Of a DNA stretch of 64,000 bases, positions 14,825 to 33,813 are shown in pieces. Position numbers and translations under genes: made by a program. The notes below the pieces were generated by a model. It was not told the origin of the DNA. It saw only the letters and a list, made by a program, of their open reading frames with translations, and did no database searches. Within the stretch, counting starts at the first letter, position 1, and each line of letters opens with the position of its first letter. The DNA comes from Cytophagales bacterium (GTDB taxonomy: Bacteria; Bacteroidota; Bacteroidia; Cytophagales; Cyclobacteriaceae), in assembly GCA_017303805.1 (NCBI GenBank), contig JAFLBQ010000002.1, positions 310,001-374,000 on the forward strand, written 5' to 3'.

Positions 14825-16867
14825 TTAAGATTTAGGAGTGCCTTCTTGTTCTGTAAAATCGCCTCGTAAAACGCGATAGCGCTTACGGGCCTCGGCTGCA
14901 AATACGCTTCCTGGAAATTTATTCAGAAACTCCCGATAAATCTCCATGGCTTTGTCCGGGTTTTTCAAGTAGCGCTCCTGAATTTCGCCTTGTAAAAAGA
15001 AGGCGTCATCGGCTAGTACATCATCGGCAAATTCTTTCAAGATTTTTTCAAGTAGCGCGAGTGCTGTTTCAAACTCGCCTTTCTTCAGGCGCAGGTTGGC
15101 TTCCAGCCAATACACATCGTCTTTTATTCCAAGCCTCTCGGTGTTTACAATCTCATCAACCCATACCGAATCACTTACTACTGTATCGTTAAACAAATTT
15201 TGTTTCTGTCTTTCTACTTGCTGTTTTAAATCCTGAAGCTGCTTTTCTGTTAGTTGTTTATCCTCCGACCATAACTTTTTTCGAATCGCTTCCTTGCGAC
15301 TCATTTTTACTTTTCGCACCACGATAAAATTCTTAAGCCGGTTCAGCGCAAGCTCATTTTTATTTTGTGCAATCAGCAACTCAATTGCTGCAAACTCCTT
15401 TAGGGCCGATCCCTCCGGATCGAACGCAGTATTTTCTTTGATGCGCATACTCAGGTCAATGGCATCGTTGGCTATTTCGCGCGAGGTTGCTTGCTTCAAA
15501 ATATCCAAATGCTCCTGCGCCAACAGAAAATCGCCTTTGAAGTATGACAGCTTTGCGTTGCGCAATTTAGCTTCGTACCCAATGGGTGTTTCGCGCTGCG
15601 CCTTTTCTACTTGCGAATACAGCAGCGTAGCTTCCCAGGGTTCTTCTTTCAACAGGTAAATATCACCTAACTCTATTTTTGCTTTTGACTTCAGGTTAGG
15701 AGCCACTTTGTTATTTGAAATCAGTTTTTGCAAACTGTTAATTGCCGAATCTTTTTGATCGAGGTAATAGGCATACAACAGCGCCTGGCTTAGTTGGGCT
15801 TCGTAGGCATTTGGATGGTCGGGGTAGTTTTCTTTAAAACCCTGGTATTGCCCGATAAGGTATTTTACAGAGTCGCGATTAACAGGGTATGCCCGCTTTA
15901 CTTTAGCTTCGCGCGCCTGAATAAGGCCGAGCCGGGCCGGCAACTCGTTGGCCGTGCGCGCATATTCTTTCGCAACAAAACCGTAGGCTTTATCGGCATT
16001 TTCATAATCCTGATTGTTGAGCGCAATTTGTGCTATCTCTAACGTTTTGGATTGTTCTTTTTTAAAGCGTTTATCATACGCGCGGGCTTGTACAAACGCT
16101 CCGTAAAAGTTCTTTTGCTGCAGGTTTACCCAAATCAACAAATCGGCAAACACTTCCGAATTTTGATTTTGCTGCACTTTGTCGTAGAGCAATCGCTCAA
16201 GGGCCTCCAGCTCTTCCGGTTTGGAAAGCAGAATCTGCATCAGGTTTTTAACATAGTTGATGTTGGCAGGTGTTTGCGTAACATAGTTAAGATACTCCTG
16301 CACCATTTGCTCGCGCTTACCGGCCATGCGGTATAAATTGGCAAGCTCCAGCGTGTACACATTTCCTCCGGCCACAGCCCGAGCCTGCAACAGGGCTAAA
16401 ATTGCATACTCTGCATGATTGCGGGCGGCCAGGTAATCAGCCATCGTTTTAAGTTTATACGCATCATCGGCCTGTGCTTTTATCAACGCCTTTAAATACT
16501 TATCGGCCTTACTAATATCTCCGGAACGTGTATAGATAATTCCAAGATCCATTTTGTACGAAAGCTTCGAATCGCGCTTAATAAGTTTTTCCACATACTC
16601 TTCAGCTTGGGTAAATCGTGCGGCATCAAGTAAAACATTTAAGTAGTTGTTGTGTATTAGTGGAATGTTCTCTGGCTTTTTAACAAGTTGTTCGTAAAGA
16701 GCAATTGCCTTTTCCTTCTCGCCCTTTAAAATGTATTCATTGGCAATTTGCACTTCCTGTATATCCTGTCCAAACGCTTTTGTAGAAAGCAGTACACATA
16801 GTGTGAATGTATATAGTATTATTATATAATATTTTAAATTTTTATAATTATCGTTAGTGGTGTGCAT
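14825..16867 (-). CDS. Exported tetratricopeptide-repeat protein
   Basis: A 680-residue protein with an N-terminal signal peptide (YYIIILYTFTLCVLLSTKAFGQ) followed by about ten TPR-like helical pairs spread over the whole length (for example EYILKGEKEKAIALYEQLVK, LKKGEFETALALLEKILKEF, EIYREFLNKFPGSVFAAEAR). The last resembles the YbgF/BamD-type TPRs of envelope assembly factors. A scaffold function in the periplasm is inferred. The start ATG is the only Met before residue 115. The first 60 bp of the gene are extremely AT-rich and coincide with a possible DNA-unwinding element beside the DnaA-box cluster. Confidence 0.8.
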   Translation of the reverse strand: MHTTNDNYKNLKYYIIILYTFTLCVLLSTKAFGQDIQEVQIANEYILKGEKEKAIALYEQLVKKPENIPLIHNNYLNVLLDAARFTQAEEYVEKLIKRDSKLSYKMDLGIIYTRSGDISKADKYLKALIKAQADDAYKLKTMADYLAARNHAEYAILALLQARAVAGGNVYTLELANLYRMAGKREQMVQEYLNYVTQTPANINYVKNLMQILLSKPEELEALERLLYDKVQQNQNSEVFADLLIWVNLQQKNFYGAFVQARAYDKRFKKEQSKTLEIAQIALNNQDYENADKAYGFVAKEYARTANELPARLGLIQAREAKVKRAYPVNRDSVKYLIGQYQGFKENYPDHPNAYEAQLSQALLYAYYLDQKDSAINSLQKLISNNKVAPNLKSKAKIELGDIYLLKEEPWEATLLYSQVEKAQRETPIGYEAKLRNAKLSYFKGDFLLAQEHLDILKQATSREIANDAIDLSMRIKENTAFDPEGSALKEFAAIELLIAQNKNELALNRLKNFIVVRKVKMSRKEAIRKKLWSEDKQLTEKQLQDLKQQVERQKQNLFNDTVVSDSVWVDEIVNTERLGIKDDVYWLEANLRLKKGEFETALALLEKILKEFADDVLADDAFFLQGEIQERYLKNPDKAMEIYREFLNKFPGSVFAAEARKRYRVLRGDFTEQEGTPKS

Positions 16868-17117
16868 ATGTGGATAACTGTCCTTTCTTTAACGGCTGTT
16901 AAGACCTTGTGGATATAAAGGTTTATAAAAAACGGGCTTAATTTATCATCGTTAAGGTATTTAATATTTTGTAAACATTTTTGTTAAAAGTGAATTATGG
17001 ATTTTTAGTTACCCACATGGAGTGGATAACCCGTGCACAGCTTCAATTTTTAACAATTTGCCACGAAGGTTTTTTGCTTGTGATCAGTTTGGTGGATAAG
17101 CAGATGCCTTTTCCACA
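16809..17117. other. oriC: Candidate chromosomal replication origin (DnaA-box cluster plus AT-rich element)
   Basis: One perfect DnaA box (TGTGGATAA, 16869-16877) and six sites with one mismatch to TTATNCACA on either strand lie within 257 bp: 16861-16869, 16908-16916, 17009-17017, 17021-17029, 17091-17099 and 17109-17117. The first two abut a stretch (16809-16851) that is about 90% A+T and includes TAG-TAT-TAT-TAT triplets like a DnaA-trio. The non-coding part (16868-17132) lies between two minus-strand genes. mnmG, a common oriC neighbour, and two parS-like sites are 2.5-4.6 kb away. This is an inference from motifs, and part of the AT-rich element lies in coding sequence. Confidence 0.6.
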
Positions 17118-17132
17118 CAATTCACAATCTAT

Positions 17133-18734
17133 TCAGAACTTTATCAATATAGGTCCGTATTCCCAATTTGCCCGGATAGGAAAGGTGTATTTGCCCTCTT
17201 CGGATTTGTAGTAATATATCGGTTCATTTTCTTTTCCGGCACTGAAGTTTCCTACGTCCCATCTGCCGTTGTTGTTCAGGTCTATGAAGTACCTTACTTT
17301 GTAATCTCCAGGCTTAACAAACCGAAACAAAAAGTCTTTGGTGTTCGATACCCGGTCAATTACTTTATCGTCAGTCGATAGAAGTTCAATGACATAATTG
17401 CTTTTTGTGGTTTCTACTTTAACGCTAACAATTCCGGTTTCATCATCCTTTAAAAACTTAATCTCTTTAGAGCTTTGCTTCGAAGTGTCGTTTTCGATGC
17501 TAACAAATGCTGATTTTCTATAATAAAGAATCGTAGGCGCTGGCTTCTTCGCGGTATCTACAGGAATAGTAAAGCTCGTGGTAATACTATGGCGTAAGGT
17601 GTCGTAAGTAAAGTTGTTCTGGTCAAATCCAATTCTTCGTGCACTGTCTATCCTTACATAAATACTATCGCTTATAAGTTTTGTAATGGGTTTATTAATG
17701 CTTACGCGGTGCGTGTAAACTCTTTTAGCATGGTTATAGGTCTCCGAAACTTCTTTTACAGCAAACGACTCGCTTACCATTTTAGTGGCAGACTTTGAAA
17801 TGAAGAAGGTAGAGTCAATGGTATGGGTAAGACTGTCTTTGGCAAATAGTTTTATCGCAATCGAATCGTTCTGGTTGGATAAATGATAGAAGATCAGTTC
17901 TGAGGTTGATTCGCCAAAGTTGTACAGTATCGGTTTGCTGGATTGGATGTGCAGGGAGTCTATGCCTTTGTTAAACCTGACGCGCGAAGTCTTTTCAGAA
18001 TTGCGGATGGAGGTAAGCTGAAGTGGCCTTGAGTCCATTTGGAACAAAGTAAGTTCAACAGAGTCAGTATTCATAGCGACTTGAATGGGCTTAGCTTTGA
18101 ATGAGAACTTTTCTGTTTTGCTATCTACCTTTAGGTTTTTATTCTTATCGTCAAATGCGTAGATGTAGTAGTTGCCTGATTTTAAATTTTGAATTGAGAA
18201 AGTTCCGGTTTTAGATGCTTTTGTAAAATATACCGGTGGCTGATTGAAGATGTTAAATGTGTCGGCCTGGTAAATAGCAACAGTTATTTTTTCTGGGATT
18301 TTTTCAGACAGGGCTTCACGAACGCTGCCAGAAATAGAAAGCGAGTCTATTACCGGTCCGGTGCTAAAAGCAAGTCGCAAATTTTCAGCCGGGTTACCTT
18401 CGGTAAGATCTTGCACGCCATCTCTGAAACTGATGCTATAGGTTGTGTTCTCCTGCCAGGCAAACTCGGGCTCAATCAGTAATTTGTTTTTGCGAACCGT
18501 AAATTTTGTATTCTTTCCAACGGAGGGAGTTATTAGAATTTCCTCTTTCGGGTCCTTTAATTTTATTAACTCACTAAAAGTGAGCTCAAGAGTTTGGCTG
18601 CTGAAATTCTTTTGGTTGTTACGAGGGTTTGAGTCAATGAGGCGCGGAGGCGTTTCATCTTTGGGCCCGCCTGTTGGGGAGGTGGTGCTTGCACAGCCAA
18701 CTAAAACAAGCATTATCGGAATGAGATTTCTCAA
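17133..18734 (-). CDS. Ig-like (SbsA/Big_5) domain lipoprotein
   Basis: A 533-residue lipoprotein: the lipobox is LVGC (Cys14), followed by a Bacteroidota-style tail (STTSPTGGPKDETPPRL). Residues ~30-130 form a bacterial Ig-like Big_5 domain (SFSELIKLKDPKEEI is absent in exact form, but LTFSELIKLKDPKEEILITP and NTTYSISFRDGVQDLTEGNP are diagnostic). A small CNA-like fold follows (SGNYYIYAFDDKNKNLKVD), and the C-terminal part has a calcium-loop-like FIDLNNNGRWDVGNF. Such proteins are common beside T9SS and gliding genes, but I do not claim a role. It overlaps the methyltransferase gene by 4 bp, so translation is likely coupled. Confidence 0.8.
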   Translation of the reverse strand: MRNLIPIMLVLVGCASTTSPTGGPKDETPPRLIDSNPRNNQKNFSSQTLELTFSELIKLKDPKEEILITPSVGKNTKFTVRKNKLLIEPEFAWQENTTYSISFRDGVQDLTEGNPAENLRLAFSTGPVIDSLSISGSVREALSEKIPEKITVAIYQADTFNIFNQPPVYFTKASKTGTFSIQNLKSGNYYIYAFDDKNKNLKVDSKTEKFSFKAKPIQVAMNTDSVELTLFQMDSRPLQLTSIRNSEKTSRVRFNKGIDSLHIQSSKPILYNFGESTSELIFYHLSNQNDSIAIKLFAKDSLTHTIDSTFFISKSATKMVSESFAVKEVSETYNHAKRVYTHRVSINKPITKLISDSIYVRIDSARRIGFDQNNFTYDTLRHSITTSFTIPVDTAKKPAPTILYYRKSAFVSIENDTSKQSSKEIKFLKDDETGIVSVKVETTKSNYVIELLSTDDKVIDRVSNTKDFLFRFVKPGDYKVRYFIDLNNNGRWDVGNFSAGKENEPIYYYKSEEGKYTFPIRANWEYGPILIKF

Positions 18735-19615
18735 GCGTGTGTGGCAGTATAGATGATACTTGAATACTCTCCGCTTGTGGATGCTCTTCGGTTTGACGAT
18801 AAACCAATTTTCAAAGCGTTGAGTCCACGCGAGATCGGGTTTCGGCCGGCATGGCGATAGGTTTCACTAAGTAACGAAACATAGAAGGCGTCAAGCTTCA
18901 TGGGGTAGGTTGCCGTTAGTTTAAAGCCATTCTGTTGAAGCAGTACGCACATCGAATTTTTTGTAAAGTGCCAAAGATGCCTCGGCACATCATAAGCAGC
19001 CCAATCTTTTTGATAATGGTATGCATCAAAGCTTAGCATATTGGGTACAGCAATAAAAATAGTGCCAGATGGTGCGAGGCGTGATTTTAATTCGCGCATT
19101 GTTTCGTTAAGCTGATGTACGTGCTCAAGTACGTGCCATAGCGTTATGCACTCAAAAGTGCTTTCAATAGCCGATAGTGTGTTGACAACCTTATTGTTCT
19201 TACTAGCAATCTGTCGGGCCTCATCAGATGGTTCAACGCCTGTAGTTTCCCAGCCCTTGTTGTGCATATAGTTAATGAAGGCTCCGGTACCGCAACCATA
19301 GTCTAACAGGTTTTTCTTAGGCACCATCCGTTCAACTAAACCGCGTTTCCAGCGCAAGGTAAAATAGCGGGCTACGCGGTATAACCAATCTTGCAAATTG
19401 CGTTTGCCCCCGGTGTGCGAAATGTAGTTGTCGGATTTATAATATTCAGCAATGTGCTGTTGGTCGGGTCGTGGGGTGGTAATACCCAGGCCGCATTGGG
19501 CGCACGTAACAATATGAAAGAGTTGTTTGCTAACAGTGTGGTCTGTTACTGTAAGGTAGTTGTTAAATAGAACCGATTGGCAAACCGGACAGGTAGTAAC
19601 AGGCTCTAACGTCAT
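18731..19615 (-). CDS. Class I SAM-dependent methyltransferase with N-terminal zinc-finger-like CxxC pairs
   Basis: A 294-residue methyltransferase. Cys9/Cys12 (CPVC) and Cys38/Cys41 (CAQC) form a probable zinc knuckle at the N-terminus. The SAM-binding motif I is LLDYGCGTGAFINYM (103-117), and the acidic end of strand 2 is VEPSDEARQ. LWHVLEHVHQLNETM follows, as in Methyltransf_23/UbiG-like enzymes. The substrate is unknown; members of this C4-plus-MTase group often modify sugars or small molecules. It is directly abutted by mnmG (upstream in the operon, zero gap) and overlaps the Ig-lipoprotein gene by 4 bp. Confidence 0.82.
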   Translation of the reverse strand: MTLEPVTTCPVCQSVLFNNYLTVTDHTVSKQLFHIVTCAQCGLGITTPRPDQQHIAEYYKSDNYISHTGGKRNLQDWLYRVARYFTLRWKRGLVERMVPKKNLLDYGCGTGAFINYMHNKGWETTGVEPSDEARQIASKNNKVVNTLSAIESTFECITLWHVLEHVHQLNETMRELKSRLAPSGTIFIAVPNMLSFDAYHYQKDWAAYDVPRHLWHFTKNSMCVLLQQNGFKLTATYPMKLDAFYVSLLSETYRHAGRNPISRGLNALKIGLSSNRRASTSGEYSSIIYTATHA

Positions 19616-21478
19616 TTACTTGCCAAGATAAACGGTTAAGATTGAAACATCAGCAGGTGAGACACCGCTAATGCGCGACATTTGTCCTATAGTTTCCGGA
19701 CGAATGCGTTTAAGTTTTTCACGCGCTTCGGATGATAGTGCTTTTACCCGGTCGTAATCGAAGTCAGGAATAATTTTATAGTTTTCAAGGCTCTCGATTT
19801 TTTCTGCAAGCTTTTGTTCGCGCTCTATGTACGATTCGTACTTCAGGTTTATTTCTACTTGTTGCTGTATTTCATGATCAAACAGATCTAGCGCTTTTTT
19901 TATACGGTTGTCAAGTTGGCCCAGCTGCTTCATTCCAATCTGGGGTCTTTTTAGCAGGGTGGTAACGGCTACCTTTTCTCCAAGTGCTGATGTTCCCAAC
20001 GCTTCGAGTGTTGCATTCACCGCTTCCGGTTCGGCCCGCATCAAGGTCAGTTCTTTTTCAAGTCGAAGCATATCGTTCTTCTTGGTTAACACTTTCTCGA
20101 AACGCGCTTCACTGGCAAGCCCGATTTTATATCCTTTTTCGGTCAGTCTTAAGTCGGCATTGTCTTGTCGTAAAAGTATCCGGTATTCGGCCCGCGAGGT
20201 AAACATACGGTACGGTTCCTGTGTGCCCTTGTTAACCAGATCGTCAATTAAAACACCTATATAAGCCTCCGATCGCTTTAGCACAAACGGTTCTTTGTTG
20301 TTGATTTTCAGATGCGCGTTTATTCCGGCCATTAACCCTTGACTCGCTGCTTCTTCATATCCTGTAGTGCCGTTAATTTGCCCAGCAAAGTACAGATTAT
20401 CAATTAGTTGTGTTTCTAATGTGGTCTTGAGTTGGGTTGGAGGAAAGAAATCATACTCAATAGCATAACCCGGCCTGAACATCTTTGCGTTTTCAAAACC
20501 CGGTATTAGCCTCAGCGCTTCGTATTGAATGTTTTCAGGAAGGGAGGTGGAAAAGCCATTCACATAGATCTCTACAGTATTCCAGCCTTCTGGTTCCACA
20601 AAAATCTGGTGTCTTTCGCGTTCAGCGAAGCGGTTTATTTTATCTTCTATAGAAGGGCAATAGCGGGGCCCTAACCCTTTAATTCTTCCCTGAAACATCG
20701 GAGATTGCTCAAACCCTTGCTCCAGCTTCTTGTGCACCTTTTCGTTGGTGTAAGTAATCCAACAGCTCACCTGCTTTTTGGGCGGTTCTGTATTTGTAAA
20801 GGAAAATTTGCCGGGGTTCTCATCTCCGGGTTGTTCTTCCATTACAGCGAAGTTGAGGCTGCGGCCATCAACCCGTGGCGGAGTGCCGGTTTTCATTCTG
20901 CCGGACTCAAAACCTAATTCAATCAATTGCTCTGTTATTCCGGTTGCGGCCCGTTCGGCAGCCCGGCCGCCACCAAAGTTTTTCTCCCCAATATGGATTT
21001 TGCCATTCAGGAAGGTTCCATTGGTTAGCACAACAGCCTTACTCCTTATTTCTATTCCAAGTGAGGTTTTAACGCCTACTACCCTATTTTTTTCAATAAG
21101 CAGCCCGCTTACCATTTCTTGCCAAAAATCAACGCCACTTGTTTTTTCTAAGGCAAGACGCCACTGCTCGGCAAAAAGCATACGGTCGTTTTGGGTTCGT
21201 GGGCTCCACATTGCCGGCCCTTTTGACAAGTTGAGCATGCGGAATTGAATCATGGATTTGTCTGAGATAATGCCCGAGTATCCACCCAGGGCATCTATTT
21301 CACGGACGATCTGACCTTTTGCGACACCACCCATTGCCGGATTACAGGACATTTGGGCAATAGTGCCCATGTTCATGGTGATCAGGAGCACCCTGGAACC
21401 CATATTGGCAGCAGCAGCAGCAGCCTCACAGCCGGCATGCCCCGCCCCCACAACTATTACATCGTATTCTGCAAACAT
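19616..21478 (-). CDS. mnmG: tRNA uridine-5-carboxymethylaminomethyl modification enzyme MnmG (GidA)
   Basis: With MnmE it makes the 5-carboxymethylaminomethyl group on the wobble U of several tRNAs, using FAD and NADH. At 620 residues it has full family length. The N-terminal FAD motif is VIVVGAGHAGCEAA, followed by MSCNPAMGGVAKGQIVREID and the MnmG signature GPRYCPSIEDKI. The C-terminal helical MnmE-interacting domain ends with RISGVSPADVSIL. I use the ATG at 21478; a TTG codon just before it is less likely. Two parS-like palindromes lie in the 63 bp separating it from ybeY. Confidence 0.96.
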   Translation of the reverse strand: MFAEYDVIVVGAGHAGCEAAAAAANMGSRVLLITMNMGTIAQMSCNPAMGGVAKGQIVREIDALGGYSGIISDKSMIQFRMLNLSKGPAMWSPRTQNDRMLFAEQWRLALEKTSGVDFWQEMVSGLLIEKNRVVGVKTSLGIEIRSKAVVLTNGTFLNGKIHIGEKNFGGGRAAERAATGITEQLIELGFESGRMKTGTPPRVDGRSLNFAVMEEQPGDENPGKFSFTNTEPPKKQVSCWITYTNEKVHKKLEQGFEQSPMFQGRIKGLGPRYCPSIEDKINRFAERERHQIFVEPEGWNTVEIYVNGFSTSLPENIQYEALRLIPGFENAKMFRPGYAIEYDFFPPTQLKTTLETQLIDNLYFAGQINGTTGYEEAASQGLMAGINAHLKINNKEPFVLKRSEAYIGVLIDDLVNKGTQEPYRMFTSRAEYRILLRQDNADLRLTEKGYKIGLASEARFEKVLTKKNDMLRLEKELTLMRAEPEAVNATLEALGTSALGEKVAVTTLLKRPQIGMKQLGQLDNRIKKALDLFDHEIQQQVEINLKYESYIEREQKLAEKIESLENYKIIPDFDYDRVKALSSEAREKLKRIRPETIGQMSRISGVSPADVSILTVYLGK

Positions 21479-21487
21479 CAATTTTGG

Positions 21488-21503
21488 TGTTCCACGTGGA
21501 ACG
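21488..21503. other. parS: parS-like centromere site 1
   Basis: TGTTCCACGTGGAACG contains the perfect 14-bp palindrome GTTCCACGTGGAAC (21489-21502) and matches 14 of 16 positions of the ParB-binding consensus TGTTNCACGTGAAACA. It is 9 bp upstream of the mnmG start codon. Confidence 0.75.
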
Positions 21504-21525
21504 AAGAAGAAGTCAATCCCCCGGT

Positions 21526-21541
21526 TGTTCCACGTGAAACT
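21526..21541. other. parS: parS-like centromere site 2
   Basis: TGTTCCACGTGAAACT matches 15 of 16 positions of the bacterial parS consensus TGTTNCACGTGAAACA. It is 38 bp from site 1 (centre to centre) and touches the 3' end of ybeY at 21542. Its closeness to the consensus makes chance unlikely. Confidence 0.85.
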
Positions 21542-21961
21542 TTATTTCCGCAAAGATAGACAAGCATCCTCGGTTTTGCGCATAAGGGCTTTTTGTCGCT
21601 TTGTCTTGTCTTTAAATCCACAAAGGTGAAGTACTCCATGGATTAGTACCCGGTGAAGTTCTTCGGTGGCGGTTGCCTTAAAGAGTTTAGCGTTCTCGGC
21701 CACGCGCTCAAGGCTTATGTAAATCTCGGCCTCAATAGGCTCTCCTTTCTCTGAAAGCGGAAAAGTAATGATGTCTGTTAATGTGCTGTGCTTTAGAAAG
21801 CGGGTGTTTATATCGAGCAGGTAGGAATCGGAGCAGAAGACAAAACTTAGGCTGGCTATTTTAGCATTGTACTTGCGAGAGACGGCTTTAATCCAGGAGG
21901 TGGTTTTTGATTTATTAACCCGGGGTGCCGTTACATCTGCCGCAAAAAAATCTACCTGCAT
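21542..21961 (-). CDS. ybeY: Endoribonuclease YbeY (rRNA maturation factor)
   Basis: A 139-residue metal-dependent RNase for 16S rRNA 3' maturation and ribosome quality control. The N-terminal region has the usual strand/loop pattern (STLTDIITFPLS). The metal site is HGVLHLCGFKDK, with His108 and His112 in place, but the third His of the canonical HGxLHLxGYDH is Asp118 here. To my knowledge Asp at this position recurs in Bacteroidota, so it is probably a lineage variant and not a loss of function. The ATG is immediately after the stop of the upstream ATPase gene (zero gap), so translation is likely coupled. Confidence 0.92.
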   Translation of the reverse strand: MQVDFFAADVTAPRVNKSKTTSWIKAVSRKYNAKIASLSFVFCSDSYLLDINTRFLKHSTLTDIITFPLSEKGEPIEAEIYISLERVAENAKLFKATATEELHRVLIHGVLHLCGFKDKTKRQKALMRKTEDACLSLRK

Positions 21962-22363
21962 TTAATTGATGTAGAAACAAAGTTCCACCACCTTCCCCGA
22001 TTCTGAGAAATCAACTTCATCGGCTAGGTGTTTCATTAAAAAGATGCCCCGGCCACCAGGCTTCTCAAGATTTTCGGGGGCGGTTGGGTCTGGCAGGTTG
22101 TGGAAATCAAAGCCATGGCCTTCATCCTCCACTCTAAATTTTATCATTCCTTCGTCCAGGCTTAATGCCAACGAAACATTTTTGCCCGAATCACTCCGGT
22201 TGCCGTGTTTAATTGCATTGTTTACGGCTTCGGTTACGGCAATCATAATGTTTCCATAGATATCATCATCCAGTTTGTACTTGTCTTTGGCGTTATCAAT
22301 AAAGCTTTCGATCATCCTGATGTTTTCAGAAAGAGAAGGAATTTCAATTCGGATGTTCTTCAT
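21962..22363 (-). CDS. RsbW-like ATP-binding protein (anti-sigma-type HATPase)
   Basis: A 133-residue stand-alone GHKL ATPase domain. N box: AVTEAVNNAIKHGNRS. G1 box: VEDEGHGFDF. G2 box: GGRGIFLMKHLADEV. This matches the RsbW/SpoIIAB serine kinase group (HATPase_c_2), which binds or phosphorylates anti-sigma-factor antagonists. There is no STAS-domain antagonist, sigma factor or PP2C phosphatase nearby, so its partner is unknown. The start is ATG at 22363 (MKNIRIEIPS). It lies 10 bp downstream of DUF4175 and abuts ybeY, in a minus-strand operon. Confidence 0.85.
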   Translation of the reverse strand: MKNIRIEIPSLSENIRMIESFIDNAKDKYKLDDDIYGNIMIAVTEAVNNAIKHGNRSDSGKNVSLALSLDEGMIKFRVEDEGHGFDFHNLPDPTAPENLEKPGGRGIFLMKHLADEVDFSESGKVVELCFYIN

Positions 22364-22373
22364 GCCAGCCAAC

Positions 22374-25300
22374 TTAGTTCTGGGTTTTAATTCGCTTAAA
22401 GTACTCGCCTACCTCCTGCTTATAGTATGGAAAAAGCCGGGGCGGCACGGTTTTCAGCAATTCTACTTCTTTTTCTTTTAATCTTAAATATTCGTCAAAT
22501 GCACGCGGAATTTCCCTGTTGTAATGGCGGGCAGCCTCCCCTTTTCTTTCATCATCCTGGTCTTGTTCGCGCATCGACTTCTCCGATTCCAATAATCTGC
22601 TTAAAATTTCTTTCTGGCGTTGTATCGTCTGCTCTGTAATCTGCTTATTAACCAGATCGAGTTCGGTTTGTTCCATTTTTGCCGGAAGGTCATCGCCAGG
22701 AACCTGGCCACCTTGCTGCTTTAATTTATCCTGCATTTCTTGCAGCGCCCTGCGAATGCGCTCCTGTTCCGCAGCCATACGGGCAAACTCCTCCGATAGT
22801 TCTCTTCCTTGTTTGCCACCACCTTTGCGCAGTTCTTCCATTTGCTGATTGAGCATCTCTTGCATTTTGCCCATGCTATTCGGCTGCCCGGATTTCTTCT
22901 TGCCCTTGCCAGGCTTTGCATTGGCCATCATGTTCATCATCATTTCGAAGTGATCGTTTAGCATCAATGCCAGGTTGTTAATGCTTGTCATCGACAATTG
23001 CATTTCGGTACTCGCATTTGCTTTTCGTCTTTCTTTAATGTTGTACACAGCTTTATCGATGTGGTCGTTGAGCTCACCCACCTCGCGTGTAACAACCGAT
23101 CCCATAAACGCATCCTTCTTCGACAGCTCTAACAGGCTGTCTTCCAACACCTTAGCATCATCTTTTACTTTTACCTGAAGTTGCGAAAGCGACACATACC
23201 GCGGGTCTGTTTGTTGCACTGGGCCAAAATCTTTTATCAAGGCCTCTTGATCGTACGAAAGCTTGATAAGACCATGAATAATCTGACGAAGGCTCTCAAG
23301 GTTTTGCATCTCCATTTCCATCTGCATAGAACTTTGCATTCCACTCAGCTTTTGCTGCATTTCTTTCATTTTAGAAATGGCTTTCTTTTGTTGCTGGCCG
23401 GATTTTTTCGAGTCGCCATTCTCCAAAGACTCCTTACTGTTTTGCTGCGAGTCGTTAATCTGCTCTTGTGTGTCTGCGTCCGAGGCATCGTCCTTATTCA
23501 GTTCATCGCCCAACTGGTCTAACTCGTTAAGCTGGTTCTCCAGCTTTTCAAACTGTTGCTTTAGATTTTCCTGCTCTTTAGCCAACTGCTGGCTCTCGTC
23601 TTTTCCCTTCGGGCTGTCTTTTTGGTTTTCAGTTTTTTCCAAAAGCTTTTCCTGGGCTTCGGTTTGTTTTTTCAACTCCTGTATAGCCTGATCTAACTTG
23701 TAATCGTATTGCAACTCTTTAAACAACGAAAGGGTGCGCTCCAATTCTTTCTCCAGGTTAATCTCTTTCCGGTCTAACTTATCCAGCATTTTCTGAACCT
23801 GGTTTATGTCTGTATTCTCCTGTAAAAGTCGTTGTAGTTCGTCAAACATCTTTTTGGTTTCTTCATCAAGCAGTTCGTCCATTAACTTTTGAATTTGCTG
23901 CGACTTTTCCCGAATGCGTTCGTTCTCTTCCGAAAATGCATCCTTCTTTTGTTCAAGCAGCGCGTTTTCTTTCTGCAACTCTTTGATGGCCTCTTCTAAT
24001 TTTGCCTTCTGGTTTATAAGATCTTCCAGCATTTTTTTGTCTTGCCAATCCAGGGCCTGCTTGCCGCGCAACTTTTGCTGCGCATCGTCAATCGACTTTT
24101 GCAGCTCGCGGGCGCGTTGCAAGCTTTGATCTATTTTGCGTTCGGCCGAGCGTTGGTTCTGACTGATCTCGGCCTTGAGATCTTCTTGGCCCGGTACCGC
24201 GAAAGTATATTCTGCCGTGCGAGTGGACTTTCTTCCATTTACACCATCATTATCCCAAACCTGAAGGTGATAGCTGAGTTTATCGCCTGGTTTTAACTTT
24301 AGGGAATCGAGAGCCCACTCAAAAAAGAAGTTCTGTTGCTTCGTATTTCTTGCAATTGCAATTGTTTTGTTTTGAATGGGTAGTTCTTTGCTGCCCGAGT
24401 GAATGGTATAATTTAATTGAAGTGCGGTAAGGCCATAATCATCGGTAATGGATCCACCCAACAGGATGCGCTTGTAGAGAACAGAATCGCGCAGGTTTTC
24501 AACGGCAATTTGAGGGTACTGATCTTTTATTATCTCAACGCGATAGGCAAGCTTGTCTTTATTCTTGCTGTTAGAGTTGGTTAACTCCACCCAGTAGTCT
24601 TCGGGGTTCCGGAAGGATTTTCCGAATGTAAACAGGTTGTCGTCTGCCCGTAGCATTACAGATGGTTCCTTACCCCCGAAGTAAATGGTGGCTTCGTTTG
24701 CATAGGCGGCAGCAATGAACCACGTAACTTTTGTTCCTTCTGGAATTTCAAGGTTGCCGGCATTATTAAGTTCTTGCTTTATAAGACCAAGGTAGGCCGG
24801 GTACTCTATAGCTACTTTAAGATTGTTGATCTCTGGCCGGTTAATAATTGTGAGATGGTATTGACTGGAATAATAACCGGCCGCCTCCAATACAAAATCA
24901 ACCGGTTGCTGAATGTTATCAAACACATAGCTGAATTGGCCAGTTGTTACGGTTTGCATTTTCCAGCGTTGCTCACCGGCCACTATGTAAACCGCATTAG
25001 GAATAGCCTCTCCTTTTAAATGCACCGAAAGTGTAAAGTCTTCATTAAAAAAAGCGTTCAACTCGTTATTGGCAATTTCAAATTGAAATGGCGCCTGTGG
25101 TGAAAACTCCTGATTGAACTGAACAATGCGCTTGGTACTTTCTGTGAAGATGCCCGAATTAATAAACAAGAGCGCGGCTATGATAGCAGCCGGAAAGAGT
25201 AAAAACTTTAAATACTTTCGGTTGCCCCGCAAGTCAATGGCCCCCTCAAATGAGATCTCATCCATTTGCCTGGCCTTTTGTGCAACACTTGCCTGGGCCA

Positions 25301-25667
25301 GGGAATTTGAATGGGTTAGCGTCTCTAACTGCAGCAGGTTTAGCAATTTATCGGCAACCAAAGGGAAGTAACTACCAATTATACGCGCGCTCTCCTCGTG
25401 TGCGAGGCCCCGCTTGTAGAGCAGCCACCGAAGCGGCTCGCGCAAAAACCGGAACAAGGTGAAAATAACAACGGCAAAGAATGCTGAAAAAATAAACAAC
25501 CGACCGCTTCGGCCCAGCCATAAATTATACTCGATTAATGTTGCAACCAGAAAATAAGCCAGTAAGATTGCCAGCGAAAGAATGGTGCCTTTTAATAAAA
25601 GGTTTAGGTAATACTTACGGGTAAATAAATTCAGTTTCTCTTCAATCTTGCTGGTGCCCACCCTCAT
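22374..25667 (-). CDS. DUF4175 membrane protein with very long Glu/Gln/Lys-rich coiled coil
   Basis: The 1097-residue product has three N-terminal membrane helices (about 22-45, 55-75 and 153-172) and a beta-rich periplasmic section to ~500. It then has roughly 590 residues of charged coiled coil, with stretches such as KMLEDLINQKAKLEEAIKEL and Met-rich MKEMQQKLSGMQSSMQMEME. The family (DUF4175) is recognised, but no biochemical function is known to me. The layout recalls membrane-tethered filaments or tension sensors. It is the first gene of a tight minus-strand run that continues with the RsbW-like ATPase, ybeY and mnmG. Confidence 0.8.
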   Translation of the reverse strand: MRVGTSKIEEKLNLFTRKYYLNLLLKGTILSLAILLAYFLVATLIEYNLWLGRSGRLFIFSAFFAVVIFTLFRFLREPLRWLLYKRGLAHEESARIIGSYFPLVADKLLNLLQLETLTHSNSLAQASVAQKARQMDEISFEGAIDLRGNRKYLKFLLFPAAIIAALLFINSGIFTESTKRIVQFNQEFSPQAPFQFEIANNELNAFFNEDFTLSVHLKGEAIPNAVYIVAGEQRWKMQTVTTGQFSYVFDNIQQPVDFVLEAAGYYSSQYHLTIINRPEINNLKVAIEYPAYLGLIKQELNNAGNLEIPEGTKVTWFIAAAYANEATIYFGGKEPSVMLRADDNLFTFGKSFRNPEDYWVELTNSNSKNKDKLAYRVEIIKDQYPQIAVENLRDSVLYKRILLGGSITDDYGLTALQLNYTIHSGSKELPIQNKTIAIARNTKQQNFFFEWALDSLKLKPGDKLSYHLQVWDNDGVNGRKSTRTAEYTFAVPGQEDLKAEISQNQRSAERKIDQSLQRARELQKSIDDAQQKLRGKQALDWQDKKMLEDLINQKAKLEEAIKELQKENALLEQKKDAFSEENERIREKSQQIQKLMDELLDEETKKMFDELQRLLQENTDINQVQKMLDKLDRKEINLEKELERTLSLFKELQYDYKLDQAIQELKKQTEAQEKLLEKTENQKDSPKGKDESQQLAKEQENLKQQFEKLENQLNELDQLGDELNKDDASDADTQEQINDSQQNSKESLENGDSKKSGQQQKKAISKMKEMQQKLSGMQSSMQMEMEMQNLESLRQIIHGLIKLSYDQEALIKDFGPVQQTDPRYVSLSQLQVKVKDDAKVLEDSLLELSKKDAFMGSVVTREVGELNDHIDKAVYNIKERRKANASTEMQLSMTSINNLALMLNDHFEMMMNMMANAKPGKGKKKSGQPNSMGKMQEMLNQQMEELRKGGGKQGRELSEEFARMAAEQERIRRALQEMQDKLKQQGGQVPGDDLPAKMEQTELDLVNKQITEQTIQRQKEILSRLLESEKSMREQDQDDERKGEAARHYNREIPRAFDEYLRLKEKEVELLKTVPPRLFPYYKQEVGEYFKRIKTQN

Positions 25668-25747
25668 AAAATTTAAAACGAAGTATAAACCAATTAGTTT
25701 TATGCGTTTCTAAGATAAGGGCAAGTGGGCGAGAAATCAAGCCATGG

Positions 25748-26128
25748 TTAGGAATCCCGCGTTACCGAATCGAACTGCCAGCCATATTCGGCTTCAAAAT
25801 ATTCGAGCACGTAAATCTTTAACAGTTTTTCCTGCTCCAGTAAGTCAAAGTGTGGCAGTTTTTTAATGAGTTTCCAATGTGGCCACCCATTTTCGTCTTG
25901 CCCCTCCAACTCGTAATACCCGGCCAGGCTAAGTACTTTGCAAATGGCAATGTGCAGCAGGTCTTGCTTTTCTTCTTTGCTAAACCGTGCGGGCCCGCGG
26001 CCCAATTCCTGCAGGCCAATCAAAAACAAAACACCATTCAGGTCCTTAGGCTTTTTGCTTACGGTTTTTTCCAGTTCGGCAAGCAGTGCGTGCCATTTGC
26101 GTTGTAAATCGAGATCGCGCTGAAACAT
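25748..26128 (-). CDS. Conserved-looking hypothetical protein
   Basis: I do not recognise the family. This 126-residue, soluble, mostly helical protein (LQRKWHALLAELEKTV, KEEKQDLLHIAICKVLSLAG) has no signal peptide and no Cys. Its C-terminus is rich in aromatics (GYYELEGQDENGWPHWKLI, EYFEAEYGWQFD). It lies 3 bp downstream of the CMD-family gene and is probably co-transcribed with it, so a linked role is possible. Codon use looks like its neighbours. Confidence 0.65.
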   Translation of the reverse strand: MFQRDLDLQRKWHALLAELEKTVSKKPKDLNGVLFLIGLQELGRGPARFSKEEKQDLLHIAICKVLSLAGYYELEGQDENGWPHWKLIKKLPHFDLLEQEKLLKIYVLEYFEAEYGWQFDSVTRDS

Positions 26129-26131
26129 ACC

Positions 26132-26473
26132 TTAGGCCTTACCAAGTTCTTCCCAATATTCGAACGCCCTGCGCAAGTGCGGTACTACTATTGTTCCGCC
26201 CACGAGCGTAGCAACCCCCATTGCCTCGTTTACTTCGGCAGTGGAAAAGCCAAGTTCGTGGCATTTTCCCAAATGGTACTTCACGCAATCATCGCAGCGC
26301 AAAACGAGCGAGCAGGTTAAACCTATCAGTTCTTTAGATTTTACATCCAGCACACCTTCCTGGTAGGCATTGGTGTCAAGGTTAAAAATTCGTTTTAAGA
26401 TCAGGTTGTCGGCCGCAAGAATTTTGTCATTCATCTTGCTGCGGTATTCATTAAATTGCTCTACTAGTCCCAT
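26132..26473 (-). CDS. Carboxymuconolactone decarboxylase (AhpD-like) family protein
   Basis: A 113-residue CMD-domain protein with the CxxC-x3-H motif RCDDCVKYHLGKCHELGF, the pattern seen in AhpD-type alkylhydroperoxidases. A thiol-based peroxidase/reductase or antioxidant role is therefore likelier than decarboxylation. I start at the ATG at 26473 (MGLVEQFNEYRS). A longer frame from a TTG at 26518 would overlap the divergent comF region and is less likely. It is paired with the downstream 126-residue hypothetical. Confidence 0.82.
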   Translation of the reverse strand: MGLVEQFNEYRSKMNDKILAADNLILKRIFNLDTNAYQEGVLDVKSKELIGLTCSLVLRCDDCVKYHLGKCHELGFSTAEVNEAMGVATLVGGTIVVPHLRRAFEYWEELGKA

Positions 26474-26546
26474 AAATGCTGAAAATAATTTTTCAAAGAT
26501 GCGGCCTATTAAGCTCAAATCAAATGCGGGCGCTTTTCTGAGGTCT

Positions 26547-27224
26547 ATGCTTCAGGGTTTTGTTTCGCTGATTTACCCGGCATATTGCCTGGGGTGCTCC
26601 AACACCCTTTACAAAGGCGAAACCATTTTGTGCACCCATTGCATCAGCAATCTGCCAAAAACAAACTATCTCTACCAATATCAAAACCCCATGTTTCTGC
26701 GGCTGCACGGCCGTCTTAAACTTAAATATGGTCTCGCATTTTTAAAGTTTCGCAAGCACGGCATGGTTCAGAGGTTGTTGCATCAATTAAAGTACAACAA
26801 CCATCCGGAGGTTGGCGAAGCGCTTGGCAAGTTGTTGGGTCACGAAATGTATACGAATGGCTATGCCGGTGAGTTTGACCTTGTAATACCGGTACCTTTG
26901 CATAGTAGTCGTAAAAGAGCCCGTGGCTATAATCAAAGTGCATGCATTGCAAAAGGGCTGGCCGAAGCGCTTTCAATAGATTGGGAAGAAACGGTAAGCA
27001 CGCGAATGGTAAGCACAAAAACCCAAACCCGAAAAACAAAGACCGAGCGTTGGCATAATGTACAGAGTGTTTTTGCGGTAGCGGATGTTGAAAAAATCCG
27101 GAACAGACGAATCTTGCTGGTTGACGATGTAATGACAACCGGGGCCACCTTGGAAGCATGCGGAACTTGCTTGCTGGAGGCCGGCTGTAAAGAACTGAGT
27201 GTTGCGTGCCTGGCCGAGGCATAA
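26547..27224 (+). CDS. comF: ComF-family phosphoribosyltransferase-like protein
   Basis: A predicted competence/DNA-uptake accessory protein (225 residues). The N-terminal zinc finger has CLGC (Cys9 to Cys12) and CTHC. A phosphoribosyltransferase fold follows, with the PRPP loop RRILLVDDVMTTGATLEACG near the C-terminus and VIPVPLHSSRKRARGYNQSA in the middle, both typical of ComFC/GntX proteins. ATG at 26547 (MLQGFVSLIYPAYCLGC) matches usual family length; an in-frame ATG at 26499 would add 16 residues. It is the only plus-strand gene in this part of the window and ends at a bidirectional terminator. Confidence 0.88.
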   Translation: MLQGFVSLIYPAYCLGCSNTLYKGETILCTHCISNLPKTNYLYQYQNPMFLRLHGRLKLKYGLAFLKFRKHGMVQRLLHQLKYNNHPEVGEALGKLLGHEMYTNGYAGEFDLVIPVPLHSSRKRARGYNQSACIAKGLAEALSIDWEETVSTRMVSTKTQTRKTKTERWHNVQSVFAVADVEKIRNRRILLVDDVMTTGATLEACGTCLLEAGCKELSVACLAEA

Positions 27225-27271
27225 AAGGAAACCGGTTGCAATTCAAGGATGCCCTGGCCTCACCCAAAATA

Positions 27272-27305
27272 AAAAGAGGCTGCCCTTTTTAGGACAGCCT
27301 CTTTT
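27272..27305. terminator. Bidirectional terminator between comF and gldJ
   Basis: An 11-bp perfect stem AAAAGAGGCTG/CAGCCTCTTTT (27272-27282 and 27295-27305) encloses a 12-nt loop that itself can pair CC/GG. A/T tracts on both sides serve both strands. It separates the convergent comF and gldJ genes. Confidence 0.85.
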
Positions 27306-27323
27306 GATCAAAGTGAAAGTCTT

Positions 27324-28622
27324 TTAATAGTTAGATCCTGCACGGATCATTGCGCAACGGAAACCGATAGTTGCTGTTGCGGAGTCTTCATCTAAGAATC
27401 TGCGGGTACCGGGCGACATCCAATAAGCTACATCTTTCCATGAACCACCTTTGTAAACACGTACCTTATCAGAGATAAGGGAAATAAAACCTTGCGGGTT
27501 TTTAGTGTATTCAAACGTGCGAATGTTTTTGGTTGTACCATCAGGAAGTGTAACGGTAGAGTCTTTCGCATTTTTGTTGTAGCGGTTGCGATACTCCGAG
27601 TGACTGTCAATAAAGTCATCTCTGCGTATCGGGTTCAGGTCATCAAAATCCTGGTGCGACAATGGTCTGTAGATATCCATTACCCACTCGCTAACGTTAC
27701 CAGCCATGTTGTACAAGCCGTAGTCGTTAGGAGGGTATTCGTAAATGTAAGAGGTAATCAAGGCGCCATCATTTAACCTTCCGGCAATACCGGCATAGTC
27801 ACCACGGCCTCTTTTAAAGTTGGCCAGGAAAGAACCCATCTGCTTGCCATAAGGGTTACGCAATGCGTGGCCATCCCATGGGTAAATGCGTTGGTGCGTC
27901 TGCATTTCGTCTAACCATTGTGTACCGATAAGGGCCTGCGCAGCATATTCCCATTCAGCTTCGGTAGGGAGGCGGTAGGCAGGTATTACAACCCCGGATT
28001 CGAGCGGAATTCTGCCAGCGCCAGTTTCGGGGGCGGCAATTCCTGCGCGTTCGGCAAGGTTAGCATTCACCTTAGCAGTACGCCATTTTGCATATTCGTT
28101 TGCCTGTTTCCACTTAACACCCACTACCGGAAAATACCGGAAGCCAGGGTAACGCAGATAGTGATCTACATAAGGATCGTTAAAAGCAAGATTGCTTCTC
28201 CAAACGGTAGTATCGGGTAGGGCCAGCGAATACGCTTTGCCTCCATCTACCTTGGTAGAGTCAACAGAAAGATAATACAGGTATTCAAGCCAATGGATGT
28301 TGGCAATTTCGGTTTCGTCCATGTAAAACGTAGCTACCGAAACGGTTCTTTCTACGTTATCGCGAAAAGACATGATATCCTCTTCCAAAGAACCCAAAAC
28401 TGTACGACCACCCTCAATCAGTACCATGTTGGGTGCATCAGGCTGGGAATTGTAGGGCATTACGGCAAAACCTTCGGCATTATCGCGTGTGTAGCGTAAG
28501 CCGGTGGCTGTGCTTATCTGACCGGGATTTTGGGCTGTTGGCTTACCACCCTGGCGCAGGAAACAAGACGAAACAGTTAATGAAAGCCCTACTAAAAACA
28601 GGAGTGACTTGAAATAGTTCAT
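27324..28622 (-). CDS. gldJ: Gliding motility/type IX secretion lipoprotein GldJ
   Basis: GldJ is an outer-membrane-linked lipoprotein needed for gliding and for stability of the T9SS GldK ring component. The 432-residue product starts at MNYFKSLLFLVG with a lipobox ending VSSC (Cys20). It then has an FGE-sulfatase/SUMF1 fold (MVLIEGGRTVLGS, YRLPTEAEWEYAAQALIGTQ, YNMAGNVSEWVMDIYRPL, KGGSWKDVAYWMSPGTRRFL, IGFRCAM). A long Asp/Arg/Asn-rich insertion (FDDLNPIRRDDFIDSHSEYR) is characteristic of GldJ/GldK. A frame reading 34 residues further upstream lacks sense as a signal peptide. No other gld genes are adjacent. Confidence 0.9.
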   Translation of the reverse strand: MNYFKSLLFLVGLSLTVSSCFLRQGGKPTAQNPGQISTATGLRYTRDNAEGFAVMPYNSQPDAPNMVLIEGGRTVLGSLEEDIMSFRDNVERTVSVATFYMDETEIANIHWLEYLYYLSVDSTKVDGGKAYSLALPDTTVWRSNLAFNDPYVDHYLRYPGFRYFPVVGVKWKQANEYAKWRTAKVNANLAERAGIAAPETGAGRIPLESGVVIPAYRLPTEAEWEYAAQALIGTQWLDEMQTHQRIYPWDGHALRNPYGKQMGSFLANFKRGRGDYAGIAGRLNDGALITSYIYEYPPNDYGLYNMAGNVSEWVMDIYRPLSHQDFDDLNPIRRDDFIDSHSEYRNRYNKNAKDSTVTLPDGTTKNIRTFEYTKNPQGFISLISDKVRVYKGGSWKDVAYWMSPGTRRFLDEDSATATIGFRCAMIRAGSNY

Positions 28623-28772
28623 TTGAGTTAGGTTATACATAAAAGCAACCGCTAATATAATCAGATAAATATATGTTTTCCAAAGGGTAGTGTTTTTTTG
28701 ATAAATCCTTAATAGAACCACCAAACCCGGAACCGATTGCTTTAACGTACCCGATTGGCCGGTAGTATGGCG

Positions 28773-32144: not shown

Positions 32145-32210
32145 TTCCAAAAACAGGGCGCAAATATAACGCGCGCAAACAAGGTTGCCAACGGTGGTTT
32201 GCGCAGAAAG

Positions 32211-32229
32211 CAAAGGTTCTCAACCTTTG
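32211..32229. repeat. Perfect 8-bp hairpin at the start of the 66-residue gene
   Basis: CAAAGGTT-CTC-AACCTTTG is a perfect inverted repeat with a 3-nt loop ending 4 nt before the ATG at 32234. It could be a small REP-type repeat or a translational control hairpin that would hide the start. Confidence 0.55.
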
Positions 32230-32233
32230 TAGT

Positions 32234-32434
32234 ATGTACCACTTCCGGTTATTTATACTTCTGCTTGCGCTAACGGCATTTTTGTTTTTGGTAATAGGCT
32301 TAATAAAGCCCTGGCTAATGTTATGGTGGGAAGATGTACAAAACCGGATGAAAGTGATAAAGCTTTACGGAACAGTAGCGCTGCTTTTTCTAATCTTTTA
32401 CCTCCTGCTTGGTTTCTGGAATGGAGTGCAATAA
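32234..32434 (+). CDS. Small two-helix membrane protein
   Basis: A 66-residue protein of unknown function with two predicted transmembrane helices (residues ~5-28, FRLFILLLALTAFLFLVIGL, and 43-62, LYGTVALLFLIFYLLLGFW). They are joined by a conserved-looking loop, KPWLMLWWEDVQNRMKVIK. The Trp-rich membrane-interface loop and clean start/stop argue that it is real, although small. It is divergent from mfd. A perfect hairpin immediately precedes the start codon. Confidence 0.6.
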   Translation: MYHFRLFILLLALTAFLFLVIGLIKPWLMLWWEDVQNRMKVIKLYGTVALLFLIFYLLLGFWNGVQ

Positions 32435-32440
32435 AAAAAA

Positions 32441-32469
32441 ATAAGGCCCGAATTGGATTCAGGCCTTAT
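32441..32469 (-). terminator. Terminator of the 95-residue secreted-protein gene
   Basis: ATAAGGCC/GGCCTTAT (32441-32448 and 32462-32469) with an inner GAAT/ATTC stem makes a long hairpin. The nine A residues at 32432-32440 become the T-run for minus-strand transcription. On the plus strand no T-run follows, so it mainly serves the minus strand. Confidence 0.7.
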
Positions 32470-32487
32470 GCAAAACAGAGGTAGTTA

Positions 32488-32775: not shown

Positions 32776-32837
32776 AACGGTAAATTTTTGAAGTGAAAGG
32801 AATTAGTAAGCGGTAGGTAGGTTGGTACGCTCGCTTC

Positions 32838-33152: not shown

Positions 33153-33294
33153 CATCAACAACATATACGAATCTCTTGTAGTGTGGTTTCAAAATTAATT
33201 AGGTGCTTGATTTTGTCTTACAACAACAACCAATAATTTTACTTTTTAACTTTAAGCAACTAATTTCCAGTAACAGGTATTATTTAACCTTCGC

Positions 33295-33783: not shown

Positions 33784-33813
33784 CGGGCCGAATGAAAATT
33801 TTTTTATAGCGAG

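What the first reader, a model, noticed from the sequence alone, without database searches (positions are those of the whole stretch)
16809..21541. Probable replication origin and centromere around mnmG
The sequence shows one perfect and six single-mismatch DnaA boxes within 257 bp next to a 43-bp AT-rich stretch with TAG-TAT triplets. Two parS palindromes, 14/16 and 15/16 matches to the known consensus, lie 4.4-4.7 kb away beside mnmG, which is an oriC neighbour in many bacteria. The combination is unlikely by chance. The AT-rich element would be partly inside coding sequence, which is unusual.
Basis: partly seen in the sequence, partly recalled or inferred. Interest (0 to 1): 0.75.

Follow-up and report, generated by a model that had tools for sequence, protein, structure and literature searches.

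The report
Chromosome origin overlapping a gene start
This stretch is very probably where a Bacteroidota bacterium starts copying its chromosome, with its segregation sites 4.4 kb away, and in this group of bacteria the DNA that has to be pried open appears to double as the start of a gene for an exported protein.

Summary
One perfect and six one-mismatch DnaA boxes lie in 16861-17117, the densest cluster of the 712,722-bp contig; the 43-bp AT-rich stretch is unmatched there; the two parS cores are the only exact ones in the 4.29-Mb genome. The reading as oriC plus centromere is supported: exact parS lies just upstream of mnmG in 62 of 80 relatives, and the densest box cluster lies at mnmG +3.7-5.0 kb in 38 of 51 Cytophagales loci. 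I add a basal-unwinding-type module: a tandem box pair unique in this genome, a spacer, then a conserved trio motif in most anchored relatives. dnaA is on another contig. GC skew agrees only coarsely: the minimum is 22 kb off, and 3 of 4 changepoints fall on the mnmG side. The unusual part holds up: in the window and its 10 closest relatives the frame of a TPR gene is open across the trio/AT-rich region, with its first ATG in or at the end of the second box (10 of 11) or among the trios, giving Asn/Tyr-rich signal peptides. In 14 more distant relatives the first ATG comes at +57 or later. Any function of the overlap is untested.

The parts
16861..17117 (.). DnaA-box array of oriC: 16861-16869 (-), 16869-16877 (- perfect), 16908-16916 (-), 17009-17017 (+), 17021-17029 (-), 17091-17099 (-), 17109-17117 (+)
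   Evidence: conserved position in relatives
16861..16877 (-). tandem DnaA-box pair TTATCCACA/ATATGCACA, offset 8 bp, sharing one base; first part of a basal unwinding system
   Evidence: the only place in the genome within 1 mismatch of the 17-mer, the 10 others having 3
16843..16860 (-). 3-bp spacer (16858-16860), then DnaA-trio register from 16857 leftwards (minus strand CTA ACG ATA ATT ATA; 4 of 5 have T in the middle, i.e. 3'-NAN-5' on the window + strand)
   Evidence: rule from PMC8287927
16809..16851 (.). AT-rich candidate unwinding element (41/43 A+T), overlapping codons of the TPR gene
14825..16867 (-). TPR-repeat protein gene with a signal-peptide-like start; ATG 16865-16867 inside the second DnaA box; MHTTNDNYKNLKYYIIILYTFTLCVLLSTKAFGQ is encoded by the trio/AT-rich region
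   Evidence: signal peptide judged by eye, no predictor run
17133..18734 (-). Ig-like (Big_5) / DUF2141 protein gene, ends 15 bp from the box array; conserved neighbour
18731..19615 (-). methyltransferase gene, conserved neighbour
19616..21481 (-). mnmG (gidA)
21488..21503 (.). parS 1, TGTTCCACGTGGAACG
21526..21541 (.). parS 2, TGTTCCACGTGAAACT
21542..21961 (-). ybeY, flanks the parS pair

Best explanation
This is the chromosomal origin (oriC) and the ParABS centromere of a Cytophagales bacterium related to Chryseotalea and Chryseosolibacter. DnaA binds the seven-box array, oligomerises from the tandem pair (16861-16877) onto trios on the window + strand and opens the AT-rich stretch 16809-16851, where the helicase is loaded. 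ParB, encoded with ParA on another contig, loads at the two parS sites beside mnmG and spreads over the 4.4 kb to oriC for segregation. In this clade the opened DNA is also the first ~20 codons of an exported TPR protein: the start codon lies in or at the end of the second DnaA box, and the trios, read one base out of codon register, give the Asn/Tyr-rich start of the signal peptide. Shown by sequence: architecture, uniqueness, conservation, an open reading frame over the DUE. Inferred: DnaA and ParB binding, unwinding, initiation here, translation from that ATG, and any coupling between TPR expression and initiation.
For: Densest box cluster of C6. The tandem pair is the only place in the genome within 1 mismatch of the 17-mer; the 10 others have 3, against 9 for the reversed-pattern control. 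Exact parS within 600 bp upstream of mnmG in 62 of 80 loci, a one-mismatch site in 8 more. Densest box cluster unique at mnmG +3.7-5.0 kb in 38 of the 44 loci tested, or 38 of 51 if the seven Pontibacter/Hymenobacter-type loci not given to that call are added (none of the seven qualifies). Of 28 relatives searched, 25 have exact parS and in 23 of these every exact site is within 1.7 kb upstream of mnmG. NTAA[C/T/G] at +20 from the first box in 28 of 48 hand-anchored loci, +19 in 6: an 11-bp box-to-trio spacer, within the published 10-13 bp peak. Cumulative GC skew of C6 is a V with minimum at 348,615; 0 of 1000 block shuffles were as deep; changepoint 346 kb, 95% 294-404 kb, which includes oriC at 327 kb. 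DnaA and ParB/ParA are encoded. Coding DUE: in 11 of 11 clade members the TPR frame is open from before the ATG, whereas in 12 of 14 outgroups a stop lies between +21 and +90 before the first ATG; over 75 nt from the ATG the other two frames hold 35 and 28 stops, at least one in each sequence; N+Y 4-7 of the first 20 residues against 0-3 in the 14 outgroups; clade support 100/99.
Against: The GC-skew minimum of C6 is 21.7 kb, and the changepoint about 19-20 kb, from the boxes on the mnmG side; changepoints of Chryseotalea (+45 kb) and Litoribacter (+19 kb) fall on the same side, that of SZAS-64 158 kb on the other; Litoribacter's cumulative minimum is 41 kb on the other side; with only 400 kb used, the C6 interval widens to 226-453 kb. 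Most large ORFs at 17-36 kb run head-on to a fork leaving to the right. The window's trios are imperfect (the second lacks the conserved base), counted from the strong box the three consecutive trios start at 17 bp where the published limit is 16, and the register breaks early in L003-L005. In Chryseotalea (G009) the mnmG cluster ties with one at 376.9 kb and a better tandem match lies at 464.3 kb beside parS; in G005 the 17-mer is not found at the array within 3 mismatches. 6 of 44 loci fail the cluster test, plus the seven not given to it; 10 of 80 have no parS there. The zero in-frame stops follow partly from how the ATG was chosen (first ATG in the open TPR frame); two outgroups, L031 and L040, are open across the region too, without an ATG there (L040 has a TTG). 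L011 rests on a weak anchor. G043, as similar in its TPR protein as overlap-bearing G102, lacks the overlap.
Confidence: 0.85

Rival explanations
1. oriC and parS are real, but the overlap with the TPR gene is only apparent: translation starts downstream and the open frame over the DUE is chance or unused.
For: Such AT-rich sequence is open by chance in about 7-14% of letter shuffles per sequence, the sequences are related, and L031 and L040 are open there without an ATG; outgroups have their first ATG later.
Against: 11 of 11 clade members are open with an ATG at +10, +16 or (L011) +23; the other two frames are closed in 11 of 11; the reading gives complete signal-peptide-like starts, and in the window the next in-frame start (GTG at +124) would remove it.
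Confidence: 0.09
2. The origin lies about 20 kb to the right, near window 36-38 kb, where gene direction and skew switch; the box cluster is a DnaA-titrating or regulatory site.
For: Cumulative GC and AT minima of C6 at window 38.6 and 36.7 kb; changepoints of Chryseotalea and Litoribacter also fall on the mnmG side, 45 and 19 kb off.
Against: No box cluster or tandem pair at window 36-38 kb nor among the listed top clusters near 504 kb in Chryseotalea; the C6 interval 294-404 kb includes the array; Litoribacter's cumulative minimum falls on the other side; the array is conserved together with parS.
Confidence: 0.05
3. The boxes serve only DnaA-dependent transcription control of the TPR gene; initiation is elsewhere.
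For: Start codon inside a box; DnaA is also a transcription factor (general knowledge).
Against: The array persists at the same place in loci where tblastn finds no relative of the TPR protein (Algoriphagus and others), and it is next to the only exact parS of the genome.
Confidence: 0.03

Closest known systems
Basal unwinding system (BUS) of Bacillus subtilis and other bacteria (PMC8287927: two sections read; PMC6669920: passages seen)
   Same: Tandem boxes with the stronger one upstream, short spacer, first trio [C/T]TA (3'-GAT/AAT-5') 11 bp after the strong box, AT-rich continuation. That B. subtilis has the same 8-bp offset is recalled, not from a call.
   Different: Not beside dnaA; in this clade the module overlaps a start codon and encodes a signal peptide; the window's trios are imperfect.
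gidA/mnmG-linked oriC of Enterobacterales (between gidA and mioC; passage in PMC10225481)
   Same: Origin near mnmG.
   Different: Here 2.5 kb downstream of the mnmG end, behind a methyltransferase and a Big_5 gene, and with parS on the other side of mnmG.
ParABS chromosome segregation with origin-proximal parS
   Same: Exact parS core, ParB and ParA present in the genome, sites within 5 kb of oriC.
   Different: parAB is on another contig (C11); only two exact sites, both in the gap between mnmG and ybeY.

Membership tests
bacterial oriC | cluster of DnaA boxes far above background | tested here: met
   on C6
bacterial oriC | AT-rich unwinding element beside the boxes | tested here: met
   (sequence only)
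bacterial oriC | GC-skew switch at the site | tested here: inconclusive
   C6 minimum 21.7 kb away inside a 110-kb interval; relatives poor, 3 of 4 changepoints on the mnmG side
bacterial oriC | conserved position in relatives | tested here: met
   38 of 44 loci; 38 of 51 with the seven loci left out of it
bacterial oriC | initiation of replication / autonomous replication | not testable with these tools
   needs cells
basal unwinding system | box with <=2 mismatches, second box <=4 mismatches | tested here: met
   0 and 2 mismatches
basal unwinding system | at least three consecutive 3'-NAN-5' trios within 16 bp of a box | tested here: met
   ATA ATT ATA starts 9 bp after box 2, itself within 2 mismatches; from box 1 it is 17 bp; three NTN in AT-rich DNA are not rare, so weak alone
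basal unwinding system | DnaA-dependent strand separation | not testable with these tools
   needs purified DnaA
ParABS centromere | 16-bp parS palindrome near oriC | tested here: met
ParABS centromere | ParB and ParA encoded | tested here: met
   (ParB TIGR00180 179.3 bits, cut-off 58.45; ParA by resemblance, below the models' cut-offs)
ParABS centromere | ParB occupancy of the sites | not testable with these tools
   needs ChIP

The most novel reading that the evidence does not exclude
A dual-coded replication origin: one clade of Cytophagales has overprinted its unwinding element with the signal peptide of an exported TPR protein, so that DnaA loading on box 2 and the trios physically covers the gene's start, coupling initiation and expression of an envelope protein. 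The Asn/Tyr-rich start of the peptide would be the protein-level imprint of DnaA-trios.
Probability: 0.35. Interest if true: 0.65.

Novelty: new variant of a known kind. Interest (0 to 1): 0.5.

Why it matters
It gives an alignable description of oriC for many Cytophagales that does not depend on dnaA or on weak GC skew and is usable in draft genomes (about 4.4-4.9 kb after the mnmG start, tandem boxes plus trio motif, parS before mnmG). The overlap with a signal peptide is a natural test of how far an unwinding element can be constrained by a second code, and it would give a protein-level fingerprint of the origin.

Tried and rejected
GC skew as a precise locator: rejected, intervals of 100 kb or more and inconsistent relatives. 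Sigma-70-type promoters in 16700-17300: five weak consensus hits against a shuffle mean of 2.5, not used. The Bacteroidota-type TAnnTTTG (motif recalled) was not found in 16700-17300 and once, at 21558 on the minus strand, in 21400-21700.

Literature: ten searches. I saw titles and abstract starts of at most 20 papers each (two lists were cut: 20 of 58, 20 of 104) and none of these pointed to this origin, its place at mnmG in Cytophagales, or an unwinding element inside a signal-peptide gene. Of PMC8287927 I read section 13 and part 1 of 2 of section 14; of PMC10225481, PMC2768785, PMC6669920, PMC5288383 and PMC13342612 only passages. The library is open-licence only and DoriC was not available. 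Plasmids marked oriC are used in Cytophaga hutchinsonii (passage in PMC5288383), but I could not see where that origin maps. So priority for the location is not claimed.

Rows dropped: the 48 rows were picked by hand from the 80 loci plus window; left out were 3 loci too short and 30 whose best tandem I did not judge a credible origin, so its counts are for picked rows. Only tandem offsets 8 and 9 were tried. The anchors of L006 and L021 come, because chose another site. One search tested the cluster in 44 loci of a list that I made by hand (L002-L043, L045, L050, L069; L016 too short) and left out L052-L054, L061, L066, L071 and L081. One search was given 29 of the 80 loci, and L021 was not held. 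One search was given 14 of those 28 genomes.

Full report
Setting. The window is positions 310,001-374,000 of contig C6 in a 4,285,222-bp, 13-contig genome given as 99.99% complete. Its MnmG is 86% identical to that of a MAG labelled Cyclobacteriaceae (L002). In an MnmG tree of 47 rows it lies in an 11-row group (100/99) with Chryseotalea sanaruensis and Chryseosolibacter indicus, genera of Chryseotaleaceae, Cytophagales, in NCBI taxonomy. dnaA is on C9 and parB-parA on C11.

Observation. The counted features are there: 1 perfect plus 6 one-mismatch boxes against TTATNCACA in exactly 257 bp, a 41/43 A+T stretch at 16809-16851, and two parS at 21488-21541. On C6 the cluster has 7 boxes where the best 257-bp stretch elsewhere has 3, and no other place is as AT-rich; the other contigs were not scanned for density. 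Over the whole genome the parS core occurs exactly at these two places only; the 24 other places listed have 2 mismatches, fewer than the 53 of the reversed-pattern control. Total box numbers in the window are at chance level, so it is clustering that counts.

Conservation. I fetched 80 named mnmG loci. Exact parS cores lie within 600 bp upstream of mnmG in 62 of 80, one-mismatch ones in 8 (all Larkinella, Dyadobacter or Runella), none in 10. Of 44 loci on a hand-made Cytophagales list with at least 5.2 kb held after the mnmG start, 38 have their single densest DnaA-box cluster at +3.7 to 5.0 kb and 6 do not. Seven more loci (Pontibacter, Hymenobacter, L071) were not on that list and none has its densest cluster in that range, so the fuller count is 38 of 51. 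Genome-wide, 25 of 28 relatives searched have exact parS; in 23 of these the number of sites equals the number already seen within 1.7 kb upstream of mnmG, one (Flammeovirga) has an extra on another contig, and one (Hymenobacter) has its only site elsewhere. The order mnmG - methyltransferase - Big_5 protein is seen in 39 of the 42 loci L002-L043. Of 14 relatives searched for dnaA, the best hit is on another contig in 9, on the same contig in 3 (about 130 kb away in Roseivirga, 610 kb in Pedobacter deserti, at the far end of the Litoribacter scaffold), and outside the fetched locus in 2 whose contigs I could not match.

Anatomy. Read in the direction of mnmG (window minus strand), the array ends with TTATCCACATATGCACA, two boxes offset by 8 bp. 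It is within 1 mismatch of the ideal 17-mer; the other 10 hits in the genome have 3 mismatches, like the 9 of the reversed control. Most anchored relatives show a pair with offset 8 (offsets 8 and 9 were tried) followed by a motif of the type gccCTAATAAC. NTAA[C/T/G] first appears at +20 from the first box in 28 of 48 picked loci, at +19 in 6, later in 4 and not in 10; in the overlap clade it is at +20 in 9 of 11. The spacer between strong box and first trio is thus 11 bp, inside the 10-13 bp peak reported by PMC8287927, which found candidate systems in 1755 of 2070 origins. In the window the register reads CTA ACG ATA ATT ATA, 4 of 5 with the conserved base.

Skew. Cumulative GC skew of C6 is a V with its minimum at 348,615 (window 38,615); AT skew has its minimum at 346,693. 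A two-level fit puts the change at 346 kb, 95% 294-404 kb; 0 of 1000 shuffles of 20-kb blocks gave so deep a V. With 400 kb only, the change stays at 347 kb and the interval is 226-453 kb. The array at 327 kb lies inside but 22 kb from the minimum, and most large ORFs at 17-36 kb run head-on to the rightward fork. In relatives the signal is weaker: +45 kb (Chryseotalea), -158 kb (SZAS-64, no usable signal), +19 kb by changepoint and -41 kb by cumulative minimum (Litoribacter), plus meaning the mnmG side. Three of four changepoints on one side is a point for the rival of an origin some 20 kb off, though no box cluster was found there. Samples in Litoribacter change sign between 110-130 and 140-160 kb (array about 167 kb), those in Pedobacter deserti between 605-625 and 630-650 kb (mnmG 618 kb) but with scattered exceptions, and those of L002's genome are too weak to use. 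Skew supports the region, not the base.

The coding DUE. The gene left of the array (14825-16867, minus) encodes a TPR protein with a signal-peptide-like start (judged by eye). Its ATG (16865-16867) lies inside the second DnaA box. In the window, L002, L004 and L009 the ATG is at +10, in L003, L005-L008 and L010 at +16 (its A is the last base of box 2), in L011 at +23. The frame is open from before the ATG in 11 of 11. Because I took the first ATG of the open TPR frame, absence of stops after it is partly by construction; the informative contrasts are that 12 of 14 outgroups have a stop between +21 and +90 before their first ATG, which comes at +57 to +100, while L031 and L040 are open but have no ATG there, and that in the clade the other two frames hold 35 and 28 stops over 75 nt, at least one in each sequence. 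Shuffling letters leaves each sequence open with probability 0.07-0.14; the product, 9e-12, overstates the case because the sequences are related. N+Y number 4-7 of 20 residues in the clade and 0-3 in those outgroups. The MnmG tree puts the 11 on one side of one branch. Two further unnamed family members (G093, G102) share the overlap; six others (G043, G079, G064, G033, G056, G053) do not, and G043 is as similar to the window in its TPR protein (57%) as G102, so a secondary loss or a narrower clade is possible. ATG positions +10 and +16 share one phase, so the trio register at +20 is one base out of codon register in 10 of 11, which turns trio DNA into AAT/TAT codons (Asn, Tyr). This is what the peptides show.

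Mechanism. The most likely course is ordinary DnaA loading, filament growth from the tandem pair onto trios, opening of the AT-rich stretch, helicase loading, and ParB loading at parS with spreading towards oriC. These steps are inferred from B. subtilis and other models. That DnaA occupancy would also cover the start of the TPR gene follows from the geometry; that it regulates the gene, or that transcription of the gene helps opening, is a guess.

Verdict. The finding is right and better supported than its author could know. Origin and centromere are a well-placed member of a known kind; the clade-wide overprinting of the unwinding element by a signal peptide makes it a new variant.

Noticed in passing
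L010 (Chryseotalea sanaruensis), 337-317 bp upstream of mnmG; G009:C2 464334: A second small DnaA-box pair lies between the two parS sites, with a better tandem match (2 mismatches) than the main array (3).
   Followed up: no
L029, L032-L035, L037, L042, L045: Larkinella, Dyadobacter and Runella carry only a one-mismatch parS at mnmG, while their DnaA-box arrays are among the densest seen (8-11 boxes in 300 bp). The three searched whole (L029, L042, L045) have no exact core in the genome. A changed ParB specificity could explain it.
   Followed up: partly
L050 (Flammeovirga sp. SJP92), +5095 and +7544 from the mnmG start: Two equally dense DnaA-box clusters flank the TPR gene; one extra exact parS lies on another contig.
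   Followed up: no
window 17133-36345: Most large ORFs right of the origin run head-on to the expected fork, and the skew switch on C6 coincides with the change of gene direction near 36-38 kb; a past inversion could explain both.
   Followed up: partly
L047, L049, L051, L068, L076, about 6.0-6.7 kb after the mnmG start: Pedobacter/Mucilaginibacter loci show a diverged tandem (like TTATAAACA-ATACCAACA, offset 9) followed by cactaataaac-type sequence, suggesting weaker or shifted DnaA boxes there.
   Followed up: no
G013 (Litoribacter populi), eight places: Two sets of four equal-scoring DnaA-family ATPase hits (frames of 284 and 246 aa), probably multi-copy transposon helper ATPases.
   Followed up: no
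L116 (G000:C11): parA and parB are adjacent, beside an ORF that resembles the C-terminus of YidC (recalled resemblance, not tested), on a contig other than that of parS.
   Followed up: partly
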